Source: Gammaproteobacteria bacterium (GTDB lineage Bacteria; Pseudomonadota; Gammaproteobacteria; SZUA-152). Taken from it: a DNA stretch of 59,673 bases. A program made the translations under genes and the position numbers. Shown one piece after another: positions 38,204-46,581 of this stretch. The first letter of the stretch is position 1. Every line of letters begins with the position of its first letter. The stretch is from positions 1-59,673 of the forward strand of contig JAKIUN010000017.1 of NCBI GenBank assembly GCA_021647505.1, given 5' to 3'. The notes under the pieces are model-generated. The model did no database searches. It saw nothing but the letters and a program-made list of their open reading frames with translations, and was not told the DNA's origin.

Positions 38204-38875
38204 TCAGCGTATCTTTTTCCATGTCACCGTGTCGCGCAGATACACCGGCAGGGCCTGTTCGGCGCCGACTGCTTCGCCGGCAACAAGGGCGGCTACGGCC
38301 AGCCGCGACACCGCCGCTGCACGCGGCAGGGCATCGCTCACCACCCCACTCACCTGCCCGGCATGGCGCGCACGCAGGCTGTCGCCGTACACGCCCCAAC
38401 CGCTACCGGCCCCCAGCCAATCCTCACCACTCACCATGGGTGTCGCATCAGGGGCAGCCACACATTCTTCACCCTGTAAACACATCAGGCCGCTTTTATC
38501 ACGCCGGTACGAGCCCCAATAGACCTCATCCATACGCGCGTCGATGGCTGCCAGCACTTGCACGGCATCGGTGGCCTGCGCCAGCGCTGCCAAGGTCGAG
38601 ATGGCTAACACCGGCAAATCCGCGCCAAAGGCCACACCCTGCGCCACACCCACGCCGATACGGACGCCGGTGAAGGCCCCGGGGCCACGGCCAAAGGCCA
38701 GTGCATCCACCTGTTGCAGAGAGATATCGGCCTCTGTCAGCAAAGACTCCAGCATGGGCAAGATCAATTCCGAATGGCCGCGCGGGGCGATCTCGAAACG
38801 CTCACGGATGTCGCCGTCGATGTTCAACGCCGCAGAACAGGCCTCGGTGGCGGTTTCCAGTGCGAGTATTTTCAT
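38204..38875 (-). CDS. tsaB: tRNA t6A biosynthesis protein TsaB
   Basis: 223 residues from MKILALETATEACSAAL (38875), with GGGTG upstream. FGRGPGAFTGVRIGVGVAQGVAFG is the conserved ASKHA-fold motif of TsaB, the partner that activates TsaD for threonylcarbamoyl-adenosine synthesis in tRNA. The C-terminus is a normal length. A CCACAGAG repeat fills the gap to yoaA upstream. Confidence 0.95.
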   Translation of the reverse strand: MKILALETATEACSAALNIDGDIRERFEIAPRGHSELILPMLESLLTEADISLQQVDALAFGRGPGAFTGVRIGVGVAQGVAFGADLPVLAISTLAALAQATDAVQVLAAIDARMDEVYWGSYRRDKSGLMCLQGEECVAAPDATPMVSGEDWLGAGSGWGVYGDSLRARHAGQVSGVVSDALPRAAAVSRLAVAALVAGEAVGAEQALPVYLRDTVTWKKIR

Positions 38876-38897
38876 TTGTTCACCCTTGAAAAGACGT

Positions 38898-39000
38898 TTT
38901 CGCCACAGAAGCGCGGAGCACACAGAGCATACTCAGCTAAAAATATGGGAGCGGTGTTACACGTTAGTCTTGTTAAAAAACTCTGTGTCTCCGTGGCAAC
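38898..39000. repeat. CCACAGAG hairpin repeat, copy C
   Basis: TTTTCGCCACAGAAGCGCGG to CTCTGTGTCTCCGTGGC, an imperfect palindrome about 100 bp long between yoaA and tsaB, both on the minus strand. Confidence 0.7.
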
Positions 39001-39006
39001 CCAAAA

Positions 39007-40944
39007 TCAGTCCGCAAAAAATACCTGCACATCCGCCACATCACGCGTCACCGGCATCGGCGGCAGACTGGCACGGAATACACGGCCATAGGGCTTGGTT
39101 TGCAGGCGCGGATCACAAATCATCAGCACACCGCGATCACTGACGTCGCGGATCAGCCGTCCCACGCCCTGCTTGAGGGTTATGACCGCCTGCGGCAGCT
39201 GGTGTTGCATGAACGGGTTCATGCCCTGCTCGCGCATGGCCGCGAGACGTGCCTGCAGCACCGGGTCATCCGGGGCGGCAAAGGGCAGTTTGTCGATGAT
39301 CACACAAGACAGTGCCTCGCCGCGCACATCCACACCCTCCCAGAAACTGCTGGTACCCACCAATACCGCGTTACCCGCCGCGCGGAAACGATCCAGCAAT
39401 TCACCGCGCGGTGCATCGCCCTGCACCAACAAGGGGTAGGCAATATAGTCACGTAGTAGCTCAGCCGCCGCTTTCAGCGCGCGATGGCTGGTCATCAGGA
39501 AAAAGGCCCGCCCACGACTGGCGGCCAGCACCGGCAACGCCGCCTGCACCACCGCCTCGGTATGTTTGGGGCTGTTGGGTTCGGGCATCTGTGGTGGCAG
39601 GTACATGAGGGTCTGCTGGGGATAGTCGAAGGGGCTGTCCCACTGCCGGCCACAGTTTTCGTCGAGACCGAGGCCGTGGGCGAAGTGGGCGAAGCTGCTG
39701 CCGACCGCCAGGGTCGCGGAGGTAAAGATCCACGCGCTCTTCTGTCGGTCGACATAACTGCGAAAAGTATCACCAATATCCAGTGGTGTCTCGTGCAGCA
39801 TGAAACCACGTGGGGTGGTCTCAAACCACAGGATGGCTGACTTCTGTGCGGCCTCTGTATCCGCTATTTCTACGTCAGGTGCAGCGGCGGCGGACTCGAT
39901 GCTGTCGACGAAACGCAGCAACCGACCCTGCAATTCCTGACTGCGCCGCCAGCATCGCTCCAACCCCTTGCCACACTCGGCCACGGACTCCAGATAGGCC
40001 TCAAGCTCCCCCAGTGCCTGACGCAAAATGTCCATGGCTGAGCCACCGCCCTGCCAGGGTGCACGACGGGCAAAACGCCCCAGTGACAGACGAAAATCAC
40101 GCACGGCCTTTTCCAGCGTCGCCGCGATGTCCTTGGCCTCGCGCGGATCCGGGGCTTCAGCGTGGATCTCCAGCAGGGCGTCACGGCTCAAATCCAGCAA
40201 TTGGCGACTGCCGAGATTGACGCCAAAAAAATTGCTCGCCACGTCTGGCAGCTGGTGCGCCTCATCGAAGATAAAGGCGTTGACGCCGGGCAGTACCTCG
40301 CCAAAACCCTCGTCGCGCAGGGCCATATCGGCGAAGAACAGATGATGATTGACCACCAGTATTTCGGCCGCCTGCGCCGCCTTGCGCGCCTTGACCACGA
40401 AGCAGTCGGCGAAGGCCGGACATTCGCCGCCCAGGCAATTATCGGTGGTGGAAGTCACCCGTGGCCAGATGGGCGCGTCCTCGGGAATGCCGTCCAACTC
40501 GGCGATATCGCCGCTTTCGGTGCGTCCGGCCCAACTGCGCACGCGCGCCAGTTGATCCTGCTGCGCAGGTGGCAGGCGTCCACCCGCCTCGGTCACCTGC
40601 AAACGGTGCGGGCAAAGGTAATTGGCTCGCCCCTTGAGCAAGGCGATGGAGGTGGCAACGCCCAACGCCTTGCGTACCGTGGGCAGGTCGCGGTGGAAGA
40701 GTTGATCCTGCAGATTCTTGGTACCGGTGGAGATGAGCACCTTCTGACCGCACAGCAGTGCCGGCACCAGATAGGCGAAGGTCTTGCCGGTGCCGGTACC
40801 GGCCTCGGCGATGAGCAGACTGTTATTGTCCAGCGCCGCAGCCACCGCCTCGGCCATTTCCTGCTGCTGGCAGCGCGGGGCGAAACCGGGGATGTGCCGG
40901 GCAAGGGGGCCATCGGTATCGAGCAATTCGGAAATACTAAACAT
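39007..40944 (-). CDS. yoaA: ATP-dependent DNA helicase YoaA (DinG/XPD family)
   Basis: 645 residues. Walker A AEAGTGTGKTFAYLVP, DEAH box FDEAHQLPDVA, and the C-terminal motif VGRLIRDVSDRGVLMICDPR are intact. The Fe-S domain has Cys residues at YLCPHRL, then CLGGECPAFADC. Length and architecture fit YoaA rather than the longer DinG. It unwinds 5'-to-3' and takes part in replication repair. As an Fe-S helicase it is an Isc client. Followed by tsaB, preceded by a nuclease-like protein. Confidence 0.92.
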   Translation of the reverse strand: MFSISELLDTDGPLARHIPGFAPRCQQQEMAEAVAAALDNNSLLIAEAGTGTGKTFAYLVPALLCGQKVLISTGTKNLQDQLFHRDLPTVRKALGVATSIALLKGRANYLCPHRLQVTEAGGRLPPAQQDQLARVRSWAGRTESGDIAELDGIPEDAPIWPRVTSTTDNCLGGECPAFADCFVVKARKAAQAAEILVVNHHLFFADMALRDEGFGEVLPGVNAFIFDEAHQLPDVASNFFGVNLGSRQLLDLSRDALLEIHAEAPDPREAKDIAATLEKAVRDFRLSLGRFARRAPWQGGGSAMDILRQALGELEAYLESVAECGKGLERCWRRSQELQGRLLRFVDSIESAAAAPDVEIADTEAAQKSAILWFETTPRGFMLHETPLDIGDTFRSYVDRQKSAWIFTSATLAVGSSFAHFAHGLGLDENCGRQWDSPFDYPQQTLMYLPPQMPEPNSPKHTEAVVQAALPVLAASRGRAFFLMTSHRALKAAAELLRDYIAYPLLVQGDAPRGELLDRFRAAGNAVLVGTSSFWEGVDVRGEALSCVIIDKLPFAAPDDPVLQARLAAMREQGMNPFMQHQLPQAVITLKQGVGRLIRDVSDRGVLMICDPRLQTKPYGRVFRASLPPMPVTRDVADVQVFFAD

Positions 40945-40965: not shown

Positions 40966-41499
40966 TCAAGCCGCCGTTTCGTCTTCGATCAGGCCGCGTT
41001 CCTGTGACCACACCAGGCGGCCAATAGCGCGGAAACGCGCCACGGACATGGCGCCACGTTTGGCACGGCTGGCAGAGGTATCGGCCATGGCCTCGGTAAC
41101 AGCCTCGCGGGCGGCCTCGATGACCTGCTGCGGCTCATAGTTCTCGTCCATGATGATCAGCATCACGCTGTCCCAGTCCTGCTCCACCTTAATCTGACCA
41201 ATGCGCTGACCGCCCTTCTTATCGCTGAAAATGGTGCGGCCCTTGATCTGGATACGGCGGCCTTCACGCACTCCGGTGCCGATGGCATCGTAGCCACCAG
41301 CGCCCGGCTCGGCGGGAATCAGCTTCAGCAGACGAATCACGTCATGCACCGCGATTTCGGTACTGATACCCAGCGCCTTGCCGGTGGCTCGTCGGTAATC
41401 CGCCGCCAGCTTGCGTGCTTCCATCATCAGTTTGTCTACGTCGTATACCGCCATGAGTGTGGTGATCTGCCTGTCTTCATCTAATGAAACATTTTCCAT
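40966..41499 (-). CDS. Unrecognised protein, possible PD-(D/E)XK nuclease fold
   Basis: 177 residues. A start at the internal MAVYDVDKL (41454) is also plausible. Residues 48-90 read E48, then AGGYDAIGTG (Asp71), then RRIQIKGRTI (Gln84 and Lys86), a spacing like the E...D...Q/ExK core of restriction-endonuclease-type enzymes. The C-terminal part is basic (SASRAKRGAMSVARFRAIGRL). I know similar conserved proteins in gammaproteobacteria but no characterised one. It lies 22 bp upstream of yoaA, so it may act with that helicase. Function is an inference. Confidence 0.6.
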   Translation of the reverse strand: MENVSLDEDRQITTLMAVYDVDKLMMEARKLAADYRRATGKALGISTEIAVHDVIRLLKLIPAEPGAGGYDAIGTGVREGRRIQIKGRTIFSDKKGGQRIGQIKVEQDWDSVMLIIMDENYEPQQVIEAAREAVTEAMADTSASRAKRGAMSVARFRAIGRLVWSQERGLIEDETAA

Positions 41500-41542: not shown

Positions 41543-41935
41543 TCAACCCCGCTCAGCGGCCTGGCGAGCCTCCTCGATGAGCCGGTGGTTCTTTTCCTGC
41601 AAGGCCGTGTTCCCCGGTGCCAGGCTGCTGGACTTGTTAGCCAGACTCACCGCCTGCGCGTAACGCCCCTGGCGGAAACGCACCGTGGCCAAATGGTGCC
41701 ATAGCCAGGCATTGCGTGGTTCAATGCGCAATGCACGCTCCAGCAGCGCTGCGGCCTGCTCCCATTGTCCAGCCTGGACGTGAGTATCGGCCCGAGCCAG
41801 CAACGAAGTCGCCGCCCGCCCGACCTCCGCCGGCACACTTTCCTCACCCGTCTGTGGCCCAGCGCAGGCGTTGATAAAGAGGACGAACAAAACAGGAAAA
41901 ATGCGTCGCAAAGAAAAGAAAAAATGTCTTGGCAT
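41543..41935 (-). CDS. TPR lipoprotein
   Basis: 130 residues. Signal peptide with lipobox FINAC. About two TPR motifs follow: HVQAGQWEQAAALLERALRIEP and HHLATVRFRQGRYAQAVSLANKS. TPR lipoproteins of this size are often cell-envelope assembly adaptors. Function unknown. Confidence 0.8.
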   Translation of the reverse strand: MPRHFFFSLRRIFPVLFVLFINACAGPQTGEESVPAEVGRAATSLLARADTHVQAGQWEQAAALLERALRIEPRNAWLWHHLATVRFRQGRYAQAVSLANKSSSLAPGNTALQEKNHRLIEEARQAAERG

Positions 41936-42267: not shown

Positions 42268-42840
42268 ATGAAAACGCTGCTTGGCGCCGCACTGATCTGC
42301 ACTCTTCCCTTTTCCGCCACCCTGTCCGCCGACGACCATTTTGCGCAGCGGCTCCAGGACAGTCGTGAGTCGGTACAGTCATTCGCCCGCGCCCTGAAGG
42401 GGAATCTGCAGAGTGCCCTACAGGAAAAGGGGCCGGCAGGGGCGGTGGAGGCTTGCAGCACCATCGCACCACTCATCGCCATGACCAAATCCAAGTCCTA
42501 CAGCTGGAAGATCAGTCGCACCAGCCTCAAGCTGCGCGATCCCGATAACGCTCCCGACACCTGGGAACGCGCCGTGATGGAACAGTTCGAGGCGCGCAAG
42601 ACCAAGGGCGAAGACGTGAGCAAGCTGGAATACTACGAAGTGGTGGAGATGGACGGCAACAGAATGTTTCGCTACATGAAGGCCATTCCCACGCTGGAGA
42701 AACCCTGCCTGATCTGCCACGGCAGTAACCTGCGTCCGGACGTCGCTGCGGCTATCGATAAGCATTTTCCCGATGACAAGGCGCGGGGCTACAAGGCCGG
42801 TGATATCCGCGGCGCCTTTACCATTATTCAGCCACTGTAG
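42268..42840 (+). CDS. DUF3365 exported haem protein
   Basis: 190 residues. Signal peptide (about 1-21, ATLSADD). A haem c motif CLICH at 147-151. The surrounding YYEVVEMDGNRMFRYMKAI and DIRGAFTIIQPL are typical of DUF3365 domains, which resemble extracellular sensor or electron-transfer haem domains. The ribosome-binding site AAGGAAACCACC precedes the ATG. Exact electron partner unknown. Confidence 0.85.
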   Translation: MKTLLGAALICTLPFSATLSADDHFAQRLQDSRESVQSFARALKGNLQSALQEKGPAGAVEACSTIAPLIAMTKSKSYSWKISRTSLKLRDPDNAPDTWERAVMEQFEARKTKGEDVSKLEYYEVVEMDGNRMFRYMKAIPTLEKPCLICHGSNLRPDVAAAIDKHFPDDKARGYKAGDIRGAFTIIQPL

Positions 42841-44185: not shown

Positions 44186-46459
44186 TCAATCCGCACAGCG
44201 CACCCTCTCACGCGGCGCGGTGCCCTTTGCGAAGGGCAGGCGCACGGCGCTGCTGCAATCCTCTGCGATACGCAGGCCGGTATGCGCATCCACCCACACC
44301 CACTCGATACCCAGCGGCGCCGGCGGCTCAAAGGACTGGACATCGAGCCGCCGCAGGGTATCGGCCCACACGCGCAGGGCACCACGGGCACCCGTGAGGC
44401 CGGCGGGCCGGTTGTCATCACGCCCCAGCCACACCACCGCCAGGCGGTCGCCGCTGAAGCCGGCGAACCAACTGTCGCGAAGGTCATTGGTGGTACCGGT
44501 CTTGCCGGCCACAATGAGCGACTCGGGCAGGCTGCGATAGGCGGCCTCGCCGGTGCCATGGCGTACCGCATTGACCAGCGCGGCATCGAGCAAGAACACG
44601 GGCAGCGCCGGCGCCGCCTGCACCACTTCCAGTGGATAGCGTTGCAGCGGCTCACCCTGTGGCGTAAGCACGGCGCGAATGGCACGCAGCGGGGTACGGA
44701 AGCCACCAGCGGCGAGGGTGTGATACATCTGCGCCACCTCCAGTGGCGACAGGCTGGCGATGCCCAGCAGTTGCGCGGGCCAGGCGGGCAGCTCTCGCTC
44801 GATACCCAGCGCCTGCAGGGTATCGAGTACCGCCGGTACACCCAGCGCTAGGCCGAGGCGCGCCGTGGCTTGGTTGTAGGATTGCCCAAGGGCCTGAAAC
44901 AGCGGCACCTGGCCATGACTCAGGTGATCGAAATTGCGTGGTTGCCAAGTCTCACCAGCGCCCAGATCGAGGCTCAGCGGACCATCGTCGAGTAGCGTGG
45001 CGAGGGTGTAATCGCCGCGCGCCAGGGCCGTCAGGTAAATGGCCGGCTTAACCAGTGAGCCGATGGGCCGCTGTGCGTCCAAAGCGCGGTTAAAGCCGGC
45101 AAAACGTGGATCACGCCCGCCGACCACCGCCAGCACCTCACCCGAATTGACGTCCACAGTCACCAAACCACCCTGCAAATCCTCGCCCGGCAGGCGCGCG
45201 AGCTGCCCACTCAGCGCCAACTCGGCAGCCTGCTGCACTTCGGGGTCAAGACTAGTGAAGATACGCAGCCCCTCGGAGCGCAGATCCTCATCGCTATAGT
45301 CACGTCGCAGCTGCCGGCGCACCAAGTCCATAAAAGCCGGCAGCCGGGTAACACCGCTGGCGGCACGCGGCGTTACCCCCGGCTTATGCCCACGGGCATC
45401 CTCGGCGTACGCGGAATCGAGCATTCCTTGCTCCGTCATCAAGCGCAGTACCAGATCACGACGCTCGCTCGCTCGCGCCGGAAAACGCCGTGGATCGTAA
45501 TAGGACGGCCCCTTCACCAAGGCCACCAACAAAGTGATCTGCTCGATCTTCAGTTGCCTCAGCGGGCGTTCGAAGTAGAACTGGCTGGCAAGGCCAAAAC
45601 CGTGGATGGCGCGGCGTCCATCCTGGCCCAGGTAGATCTCGTTGAGGTAGGCCTCGAGGATTTCATCCTTGTCGTAGCGCCACTCCAGCAGCAAGGCCAT
45701 GATGGCCTCGTTGAGCTTACGCGTGAGGGTACGTTCGTTGCTGAGAAAAAAATTTTTCACCAGCTGCTGGGTCAGGGTGCTGCCGCCCTGTACCGTATGC
45801 CCGGCACGCAGATTGGCCCACAGGGCACGGCCAATGGCGCGCGGTGAGACGCCATGGTGCTGATAGAAATCGCGGTCTTCCACCGTCAGCAAGGCATCGA
45901 TGAGCAGTGGCGGCACCTCATCAAGACGTACCAACACACGGTCTTCCTTGTGGGCGGGATAGATGCGGCCAATCAGCGACGGATCCAGCCGAACCAAGTC
46001 GACCACATCACCGTTGTCGGCACGCCGGATATCACTCAGGTTCCGGCGGGAGAATTCCACCCGTAGGGTGCGCGAGGGCTCACGGCCATCCCAGAAATCA
46101 AAGCTGCGGGTGGTGATAACCAGACTACGGCCGAGCCAGGCATAGGTGCCAGGCTGATGCGGGCGATTGTGCTCACGGTAACCAAGACGCTGCAACTCAG
46201 CTTGTAGCTGCTCCACCGTCAATGCCTGACCGGGATACAACTCCAGCGGCCGCGCATAGACCTGTGCCGGCAACGCCCAGCGCTTACCCTCGAACTGCTG
46301 GCGTACCTGGTTATCGAGCCAGGCGACATAAACCAGCAGCGCTACAAAGCCGATAAGCATGACGGTAAACAGCGCGCGCAGCACAGGGCGCCTTTTCTGT
46401 GGGCGCCGACGGCGGCTGGCGGACTTGCGCCGGGGCTTGGAAGATTTGCGACGGGCCAT
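44186..46459 (-). CDS. mrcB: Penicillin-binding protein 1B
   Basis: 757 residues from the ATG at 46459 after GGAGCAC. Basic cytoplasmic N-terminus, one membrane helix (LFTVMLIGFVALLVYVAWL), UB2H-like region, glycosyltransferase domain (LTVEDRDFYQHHGVSPRAIGRA, QGGSTLTQQLVKN) and transpeptidase domain with SLVKP-type (GSLVKPAIYLTA), SYN (QSYNQA) and KTGT (AGKTGTTND). Bifunctional peptidoglycan synthase at the inner membrane. A C-terminal Cys pair closes the tail. It is divergent from the APH-kinase gene. Confidence 0.95.
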   Translation of the reverse strand: MARRKSSKPRRKSASRRRRPQKRRPVLRALFTVMLIGFVALLVYVAWLDNQVRQQFEGKRWALPAQVYARPLELYPGQALTVEQLQAELQRLGYREHNRPHQPGTYAWLGRSLVITTRSFDFWDGREPSRTLRVEFSRRNLSDIRRADNGDVVDLVRLDPSLIGRIYPAHKEDRVLVRLDEVPPLLIDALLTVEDRDFYQHHGVSPRAIGRALWANLRAGHTVQGGSTLTQQLVKNFFLSNERTLTRKLNEAIMALLLEWRYDKDEILEAYLNEIYLGQDGRRAIHGFGLASQFYFERPLRQLKIEQITLLVALVKGPSYYDPRRFPARASERRDLVLRLMTEQGMLDSAYAEDARGHKPGVTPRAASGVTRLPAFMDLVRRQLRRDYSDEDLRSEGLRIFTSLDPEVQQAAELALSGQLARLPGEDLQGGLVTVDVNSGEVLAVVGGRDPRFAGFNRALDAQRPIGSLVKPAIYLTALARGDYTLATLLDDGPLSLDLGAGETWQPRNFDHLSHGQVPLFQALGQSYNQATARLGLALGVPAVLDTLQALGIERELPAWPAQLLGIASLSPLEVAQMYHTLAAGGFRTPLRAIRAVLTPQGEPLQRYPLEVVQAAPALPVFLLDAALVNAVRHGTGEAAYRSLPESLIVAGKTGTTNDLRDSWFAGFSGDRLAVVWLGRDDNRPAGLTGARGALRVWADTLRRLDVQSFEPPAPLGIEWVWVDAHTGLRIAEDCSSAVRLPFAKGTAPRERVRCAD

Positions 46460-46581
46460 AGTGCTCCGTGAGAGTGCTCCGGGAGGAAAAAACCGCATTG
46501 TAACGCAATTCTGGTGGCTGATTTTTTGCCCCGCCAAGCCCATACTGAGGGCTGCGGGCAGACAAGAGGAAAAAACCGGAC

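What the first reader, a model, noticed from the sequence alone, without database searches (positions are those of the whole stretch)
40966..41499. Possible uncharacterised nuclease next to the YoaA helicase
The Asp71 and Gln84-x-Lys86 spacing fits a PD-(D/E)XK core and the gene is 22 bp before an Fe-S repair helicase. A helicase-nuclease pair in DNA repair is a reasonable hypothesis.
Basis: inference. Interest (0 to 1): 0.5.

Follow-up and report, generated by a model that had tools for sequence, protein, structure and literature searches.

The report
BisI-type endonuclease in YoaA operon
The small gene is a relative of enzymes that cut DNA carrying methylated cytosine, and it sits next to a DNA-repair helicase in many related bacteria, so it may be a restriction enzyme turned into a genome-care enzyme.

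Summary
The ORF and the residues are real. The gene encodes a PD-QxK endonuclease-fold protein of the BisI family (Esp638I/Pam7902I branch), so it is not a wholly uncharacterised nuclease. It is 38% identical over 151 aa to Pam7902I, a tested 5-methylcytosine-dependent restriction enzyme, and keeps all six residues mutated in that study. Its predicted structure finds Eco15I and NhoI first. The start is probably M16 (41454), giving 162 aa. PADLOC's 'mREase_II' model already matches it.

The unexpected part is the setting. Of 111 gammaproteobacterial genomes with a homologue (370 searched), 89 have it directly upstream of yoaA on the same strand, median gap 34 nt. In a tree of 127 rows the chromosomal members split from the Pam7902I-like, mostly plasmid-borne ones by a fully supported branch. 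In the window's genus it is under purifying selection like YoaA's.

A helicase-nuclease repair pair is possible but unproven: some genomes without a strong YoaA match keep the gene near tsaB, most genomes with YoaA lack it, and 16 of 170 members have altered core residues.

The parts
40966..41499 (-). PD-QxK endonuclease-fold ORF as reported (177 aa); the functional start is probably M16 at 41454 (162 aa)
41452..41454 (-). probable true start codon (ATG, M16)
   Evidence: similarity among homologues starts here; residues 1-15 little constrained
41356..41358 (-). codon of E48 (equivalent to Pam7902I E39; NhoI E50 if the chain numbering is offset by two, which I inferred)
   Evidence: 179 of 180 homologues
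41287..41289 (-). codon of D71 (Pam7902I D59)
   Evidence: 174 of 180
41248..41250 (-). codon of Q84 (Pam7902I Q72)
   Evidence: 168 of 180
41242..41244 (-). codon of K86 (Pam7902I K74)
   Evidence: 180 of 180
41170..41172 (-). codon of D110 (Pam7902I D98)
   Evidence: 178 of 180
41146..41148 (-). codon of D118 (Pam7902I D106)
   Evidence: D in 146, N in 32 of 180
39007..40944 (-). YoaA, XPD/DinG-family repair helicase
   Evidence: NF053712, 888.7 bits, cut-off 680
38204..38923 (-). TsaB, downstream neighbour of the cluster
   Evidence: TIGR03725, 205 bits, cut-off 69.3
41543..41935 (-). TPR protein upstream, same strand, perhaps a lipoprotein (reading by eye)
   Evidence: Pfam TPR_2 6.4e-12

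Best explanation
It is a chromosomal PD-QxK endonuclease of the BisI family, Esp638I/Pam7902I branch, inherited largely vertically. By homology it is a homodimer that binds duplex DNA without a separate sensor domain and cuts it with a divalent metal held by E48, D71 and Q84, with K86 assisting. Its relatives require 5-methyl- or hydroxymethyl-cytosine in short G+C-rich sites, so the likely substrate is duplex DNA with a modified or otherwise altered cytosine. The YoaA-linked clade is most likely a domesticated form working in DNA maintenance: it is encoded in one run of genes with YoaA and may incise aberrant duplex DNA so that YoaA can open it. Shown here: family, predicted fold, residues, linkage, purifying selection, separation from the Pam7902I-like clade. 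Inferred: vertical inheritance, dimerisation, metal use, cutting, substrate, maintenance role, co-expression and co-operation with YoaA. I hold the family assignment at about 0.9; the confidence given is for the whole statement, including the maintenance role.
For: 38% identity over 151 aa to Pam7902I, identified by accession WP_054068722, with all six mutated residues kept. PADLOC mREase_II matches 26 of 26 members scanned. Profile match to the solved NhoI (1.1e-05) and Eco15I (1.5e-05). The predicted structure (pLDDT 83.1) finds Eco15I and NhoI first by Foldseek; VIA Z 13.0 to NhoI, 11.6 to Eco15I, 10.5 to PvuII. Adjacent and co-directional with yoaA in 89 of 111 genomes, 2 more lacking room, and in 76 of 80 named loci, which partly overlap the 111. 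In a tree of 127 rows, 117 chromosomal rows lie apart from 10 Pam7902I-like ones, 100/100. dN/dS 0.05-0.12 against 0.06-0.11 for the part of YoaA covered and 0.06-0.20 for the TPR gene, four same-genus loci. R29, D53 and W109 are invariant in 170 of 170 rows and differ in 15, 15 and 14 of 15 Pam7902I-like rows. A strong NF053712 match (E under 1e-20, my own line, so DinG or fragments may be among them) in 102 of 111 genomes with the gene against 196 of 259 without it (counted by hand; Fisher p 1.8e-4, not corrected for relatedness).
Against: No activity was measured. BisI-family enzymes are described as restriction enzymes; no repair role came up in what I read. 9 of the 111 genomes lack a strong YoaA match; in 3 of these tsaB is the next gene and in a fourth one ORF lies between. 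196 of 259 genomes without the gene have a strong YoaA match, so YoaA does not need it. The gene is in only 111 of 370 genomes of the class, and several families (f52, f64, f80, f110) are split in the tree, so transfer, loss or poor resolution is not excluded. 16 of 170 rows have a changed core residue; three (L026, L117, L126) lack both D71 and Q84. Shared descent alone could explain the nuclease-YoaA distance correlation (0.43). No LexA-like box within one mismatch lies between the TPR gene and this gene.
Confidence: 0.5

Rival explanations
1. It is an ordinary 5mC/5hmC-dependent restriction enzyme (Type IIM/IV) for phage defence that simply settled at a stable chromosomal position next to yoaA.
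For: Closest tested relative Pam7902I cuts GCSSGC-type sites with m5C; all required residues present; PADLOC mREase_II. Genomes with it carry C5 methyltransferases slightly less often (33 of 111 against 101 of 259; p 0.10), the direction expected of such an enzyme. The own genome's methyltransferase beside a SinI-type enzyme would be expected (specificity recalled, GGWCC) to modify other sites.
Against: One match per genome, mostly the same neighbour, over 82 of 272 sampled genera, and strong purifying selection in the genus tested are unlike the scattered pattern of the Pam7902I-like sister clade. Core residues are lost in some lineages without loss of the gene.
Confidence: 0.35
2. In this clade the fold serves mainly to bind DNA or a partner (YoaA or the clamp loader), and cutting is dispensable.
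For: 16 of 170 rows have altered core residues, 10 of the 16 still beside yoaA; the clade-specific invariant residues R29, D53 and W109 lie outside the catalytic four.
Against: 154 of 170 rows keep E, D, Q and K, and K86 and R88 are invariant in 180 of 180; a pure binder would be expected to drift more at the catalytic residues.
Confidence: 0.12
3. The nuclease and YoaA are unrelated in function; the linkage is inherited gene order around tsaB.
For: The gene stays before tsaB where no strong YoaA match exists in 3 genomes, with one ORF between in a fourth.
Against: Co-occurrence is above expectation without phylogenetic correction (p 1.8e-4), and short gaps (median 34 nt) kept over great sequence divergence suggest co-expression. 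This reading overlaps with the defence rival.
Confidence: 0.3

Closest known systems
Pam7902I / Esp638I branch of the BisI family (m5C-dependent restriction endonucleases)
   Same: 38% identity over 151 aa, same length (162 aa from M16), same active-site spacing, all six mutated residues kept
   Different: Pam7902I is plasmid-borne among mostly hypothetical genes; the window gene lies in a cluster with yoaA and tsaB, in a separate clade with R29, D53 and W109. Methylation-dependent cutting is untested.
NhoI and Eco15I (BisI family, solved structures 8q5n/8rpx, 8q5m/8q5o)
   Same: Best sequence and fold matches in the PDB; equivalent E, D and QxK
   Different: Only 16-19% identity in the structural alignments of the listed rows; the GCNGC methyl-pocket motif could not be placed
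PvuII
   Same: Same PD-(D/E)XK fold type, Z up to 10.5 though with rmsd 8.5
   Different: About 10% identity; not modification-dependent (PMC11347163)
YoaA-chi repair complex of E. coli
   Same: The neighbour is YoaA; the published model has YoaA unwinding the nascent strand so that a nuclease, not named in the passages that I saw, can act (PMC11981726)
   Different: None of the 14 control genomes, E. coli among them, gave a hit with the mREase_II profile
ExoDinG and CasDinG-HNH (helicase-nuclease fusions)
   Same: DinG-family helicase combined with a nuclease (passages of PMC11981726)
   Different: Here the nuclease is a separate protein of another fold; the long frames that I looked at around five members do not look like fusions

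Membership tests
BisI family, Esp638I/Pam7902I branch | Significant sequence similarity to a characterised member | tested here: met
   38% over 151 aa to Pam7902I WP_054068722, pairwise E 1e-30
BisI family, Esp638I/Pam7902I branch | PD-QxK active site with E and D-X12-QxK | tested here: met
   E48, D71, Q84, K86 aligned to Pam7902I E39, D59, Q72, K74
BisI family, Esp638I/Pam7902I branch | Further residues needed by Pam7902I (D98, D106) | tested here: met
   D110 and D118
BisI family, Esp638I/Pam7902I branch | BisI-type fold | tested here: met
   AlphaFold2 model pLDDT 83.1; Foldseek 4.7e-07 to Eco15I; VIA Z 13.0 to NhoI, rmsd 3.2 over 121 residues; Foldseek TM-scores only 0.41-0.51 in the first ten rows
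BisI family, Esp638I/Pam7902I branch | 5mC- or 5hmC-dependent cleavage within a short site | not testable with these tools
   needs an in vitro assay
BisI family, Esp638I/Pam7902I branch | (H/R)(V/I/T/M) internal methyl pocket of GCNGC enzymes | tested here: inconclusive
   profile alignments to NhoI and Eco15I end before that motif
PADLOC mREase_II | Profile match | tested here: met
   PDLC03209, 3.6e-28 for the window protein, 26 of 26 members
Pfam DUF6998 | Score over the gathering cut-off | tested here: not met
   15.7 bits against 27
Type II restriction-modification system | Cognate methyltransferase beside the nuclease | tested here: not met
   immediate neighbours are a TPR protein, YoaA and TsaB; the two C5 methyltransferases found lie on other contigs; N4/N6 types were not searched for
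YoaA repair partner | Conserved linkage to yoaA | tested here: met
   89 of 111 genomes
YoaA repair partner | Physical or genetic interaction with YoaA | not testable with these tools
   needs the bench

The most novel reading that the evidence does not exclude
A modification-dependent restriction endonuclease was domesticated early in a large group of Gammaproteobacteria and became the dedicated nuclease partner of YoaA: it recognises modified or deaminated (T:G) cytosine sites in duplex DNA at stalled forks and nicks or cuts them, and YoaA with chi opens the end for repair.
Probability: 0.25. Interest if true: 0.78.

Novelty: new variant of a known kind. Interest (0 to 1): 0.5.

Why it matters
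The nuclease that acts after YoaA is not named in the passages of the DinG review that I saw (PMC11981726). If the YoaA-linked BisI clade works there, it offers a directly testable candidate and a case of a defence enzyme turned into a maintenance enzyme. If it is still a restriction enzyme, it is an unusually stable, core-like defence gene. Either way, a group of genes for which NCBIfam gave no convincing name in the 26 members scanned can be called BisI-type endonucleases.

Tried and rejected
DUF6998 as the family: below cut-off for the window protein, though 22 of 26 members match it at E up to 1, best 5.8e-10. phrog_24787 matched 12 of 26 members, best 0.00026, with no function given. One viral-contig scan confirmed no relative, and phages gave only partial matches at E 0.9, so phage origin was not pursued. 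A LexA box upstream: 26 one-mismatch sites in the window against 17.6 expected (5 of 100 shuffles as many), none between the TPR gene and this gene. Fusion with YoaA: the long frames around five members and L024 look like read-through upstream, judged by eye. Depletion of C5 methyltransferases in genomes with the gene: 33 of 111 against 101 of 259, p 0.10, not significant and not corrected for relatedness. Placing the GCNGC methyl pocket: alignments too short. Holliday-junction resolvases (Hjc, RecU) appear in the fold list at Z about 6 to 8, below NhoI, Eco15I and PvuII, and were not preferred. The mREase_II profile found 110 of the 370 genomes, one fewer than the protein search.

Literature searches, open-licence papers only. 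'DUF6998' gave no paper; 'BisI' with 'YoaA' gave one paper (listing only; by title and abstract not about this); 'YoaA' with 'restriction endonuclease' and 'neighbor' gave one, on Rpn proteins (listing only); 'BisI' with 'DinG' gave noise. I saw no report of this linkage there; REBASE was not searched. Papers seen: PMC11347163 (outline, abstract, sections 4, 20 to 23), PMC8281217 (outline, abstract, sections 17, 18, 24), PMC4926085 (parts 1 and 2 of 6), PMC11981726 (passages), PMC7641849 (one passage); the other papers named in listings were not opened.

Full report
Observation. The ORF at 40966-41499 (-) exists, with E48, D71, Q84 and K86. The gene downstream on the same strand is YoaA by an equivalog model well over its cut-off, followed by TsaB; a TPR protein lies upstream. 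The gap to yoaA is 21 nt. Among four same-genus loci (six pairs) residues 16-177 give dN/dS 0.05-0.12, close to YoaA (0.06-0.11, about 490 of its 645 codons) and somewhat below the TPR gene (0.06-0.20); residues 1-15 show pN 0.13-0.39 against pS 0.32-0.51, and in L002 and L005 the upstream ATG is out of frame. M16 (41454) is therefore the probable start.

What it is. Pfam gave only DUF6998 below cut-off and NCBIfam nothing for the window protein. phmmer against the PDB gave NhoI at 0.024 and Eco15I at 0.86; a 26-member profile brought both to about 1e-05. PADLOC's mREase_II model PDLC03209 matched 26 of 26 members. A tblastn of plasmids found 26 records, one of them P. amygdali YM7902. Its protein WP_054068722.1 is the accession that PMC8281217 gives for Pam7902I (section 17). 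All six residue numbers of that paper's mutagenesis (section 18) fit that protein, and all six are kept in the window protein. In the paper E39A, D59A, K74A, D98A and D106A abolish activity and Q72A leaves part. For NhoI and Eco15I the catalytic residues are E, D and QxK (PMC11347163 section 21); the E aligned here is the same one if the chain numbering is offset by two, which I inferred. The AlphaFold2 model (pLDDT 83.1) has its best Foldseek matches in Eco15I and NhoI, then PvuII. VIA-align gives Z 13.0 to NhoI (121 residues, rmsd 3.2), 11.6 to Eco15I and 10.5 to PvuII (rmsd 8.5). Foldseek TM-scores of the first ten rows are 0.41-0.51 with rmsd 6-12, so the match is of fold type, not of detail.

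Distribution. 111 of 370 gammaproteobacterial genomes (82 of 272 genera) gave one match each; the other 259 gave none. A phylum-wide sample gave 10 of 397: 3 of its loci (the window itself, L225, L226) lie beside YoaA; 5 (L227 to L231) are 50-63% identical to Pam7902I or its Cupriavidus relative and show no YoaA match in the fetched stretch; 2 are weak. The named loci (80 kept of 179 relatives found) are almost all metagenome-assembled Gammaproteobacteria, among them Thiogranum, Thiohalobacter, Chromatiales and Chromatiaceae.

Linkage. Of the 111 genomes, 89 have yoaA directly downstream on the same strand within 400 nt (median 34 nt), 3 at 900-1500 nt, 2 lack room, and 17 show none; the 17 include the Pam7902I-like L127. 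Of the 80 named loci 76 are adjacent; these partly overlap the 111. A tree of 127 rows puts nine plasmid proteins and one from a long contig (L127) on one side of a 100/100 branch and 117 rows on the other. Non-adjacent rows sit in several separate places within the latter, which suggests secondary loss of the linkage. Many GTDB families group together, but f52, f64, f80 and f110 are split, and the bootstrap had not settled. Nuclease and YoaA distances correlate (Spearman 0.43, 85 loci, 0 of 999 permutations as high), which common descent alone would also give.

Evidence against an obligate pair. Counting by hand, with E under 1e-20 as 'strong' (this includes matches below the YoaA cut-off, so perhaps DinG or fragments), 9 of the 111 genomes have no strong match (5 none, 4 with E above 1e-7). 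In three of these (L075, L128, L129) TsaB is the next gene, in L128 after about 300 nt; in L125 a TsaB/TsaD-family gene (PF00814) follows after one reverse ORF. 196 of 259 genomes without the nuclease have a strong YoaA match. Core residues differ from E-D-Q-K in 16 of 170 rows that are not Pam7902I-like, and in 0 of 15 that are (the 170 are defined by exclusion and not all were in the tree). 10 of those 16 are beside yoaA. L026, L117 and L126 lack both D71 and Q84; the first two are beside yoaA and the third lacks room. Cutting is probably the rule but not universal.

Defence or maintenance. For defence: the family. For maintenance: one match per genome at a mostly fixed place, selection like YoaA's in the genus tested, and three residues, R29, D53 and W109, invariant in 170 of 170 rows (in the 15 Pam7902I-like rows K 15, E 12 with V or L 3, F or C 14). 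C5 methyltransferases occur in 33 of 111 genomes with the gene against 101 of 259 without (p 0.10); the window's own genome has two, one beside a SinI-type enzyme gene. This neither excludes nor shows an m5C-cutting enzyme. That BisI enzymes tolerate T in place of 5mC and perhaps G:T mispairs (PMC11347163 section 22) makes a repair substrate conceivable; this is inference.

Verdict. The family is known (BisI type; PADLOC mREase_II). The YoaA-linked chromosomal clade is the new variant; in the searches I saw no report of it, and the DinG review was seen only in passages.

Noticed in passing
L222 572-1747 (+) and L223 1342-2799 (-), window's own genome: Two C5 DNA methyltransferases on other contigs; the second lies beside an ORF matching SinI restriction endonuclease (PF09570, 128 bits), a likely GGWCC-type R-M system (specificity recalled).
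   Followed up: partly
L026, L117, L126 (one family, f2): Members in which D71 became S or T and Q84 became L: probable pseudo-nucleases, two of them still beside yoaA and the third without enough flank to tell.
   Followed up: partly
L125, L128, L129 (one family, f92): Genomes without a strong YoaA match keep the nuclease near tsaB, with long branches in the tree (1.6, 2.9, 3.5), possibly relaxed selection; the tree program warns that long branches meet there.
   Followed up: no
window 44186-46543 (-): PBP1b-like bifunctional transglycosylase/transpeptidase upstream on the same strand; in L131 a PBP1b-like frame lies before the nuclease, so an older gene order PBP1b-TPR-nuclease-yoaA-tsaB is possible.
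   Followed up: partly
plasmid records H1 to H20: All 20 listed plasmid homologues (of 26 records) are annotated as hypothetical proteins, though Pam7902I (H7) is a tested enzyme.
   Followed up: partly
window 42268-42840 (+): ORF with a CxxCH motif, perhaps a haem protein (reading by eye, not searched).
   Followed up: no
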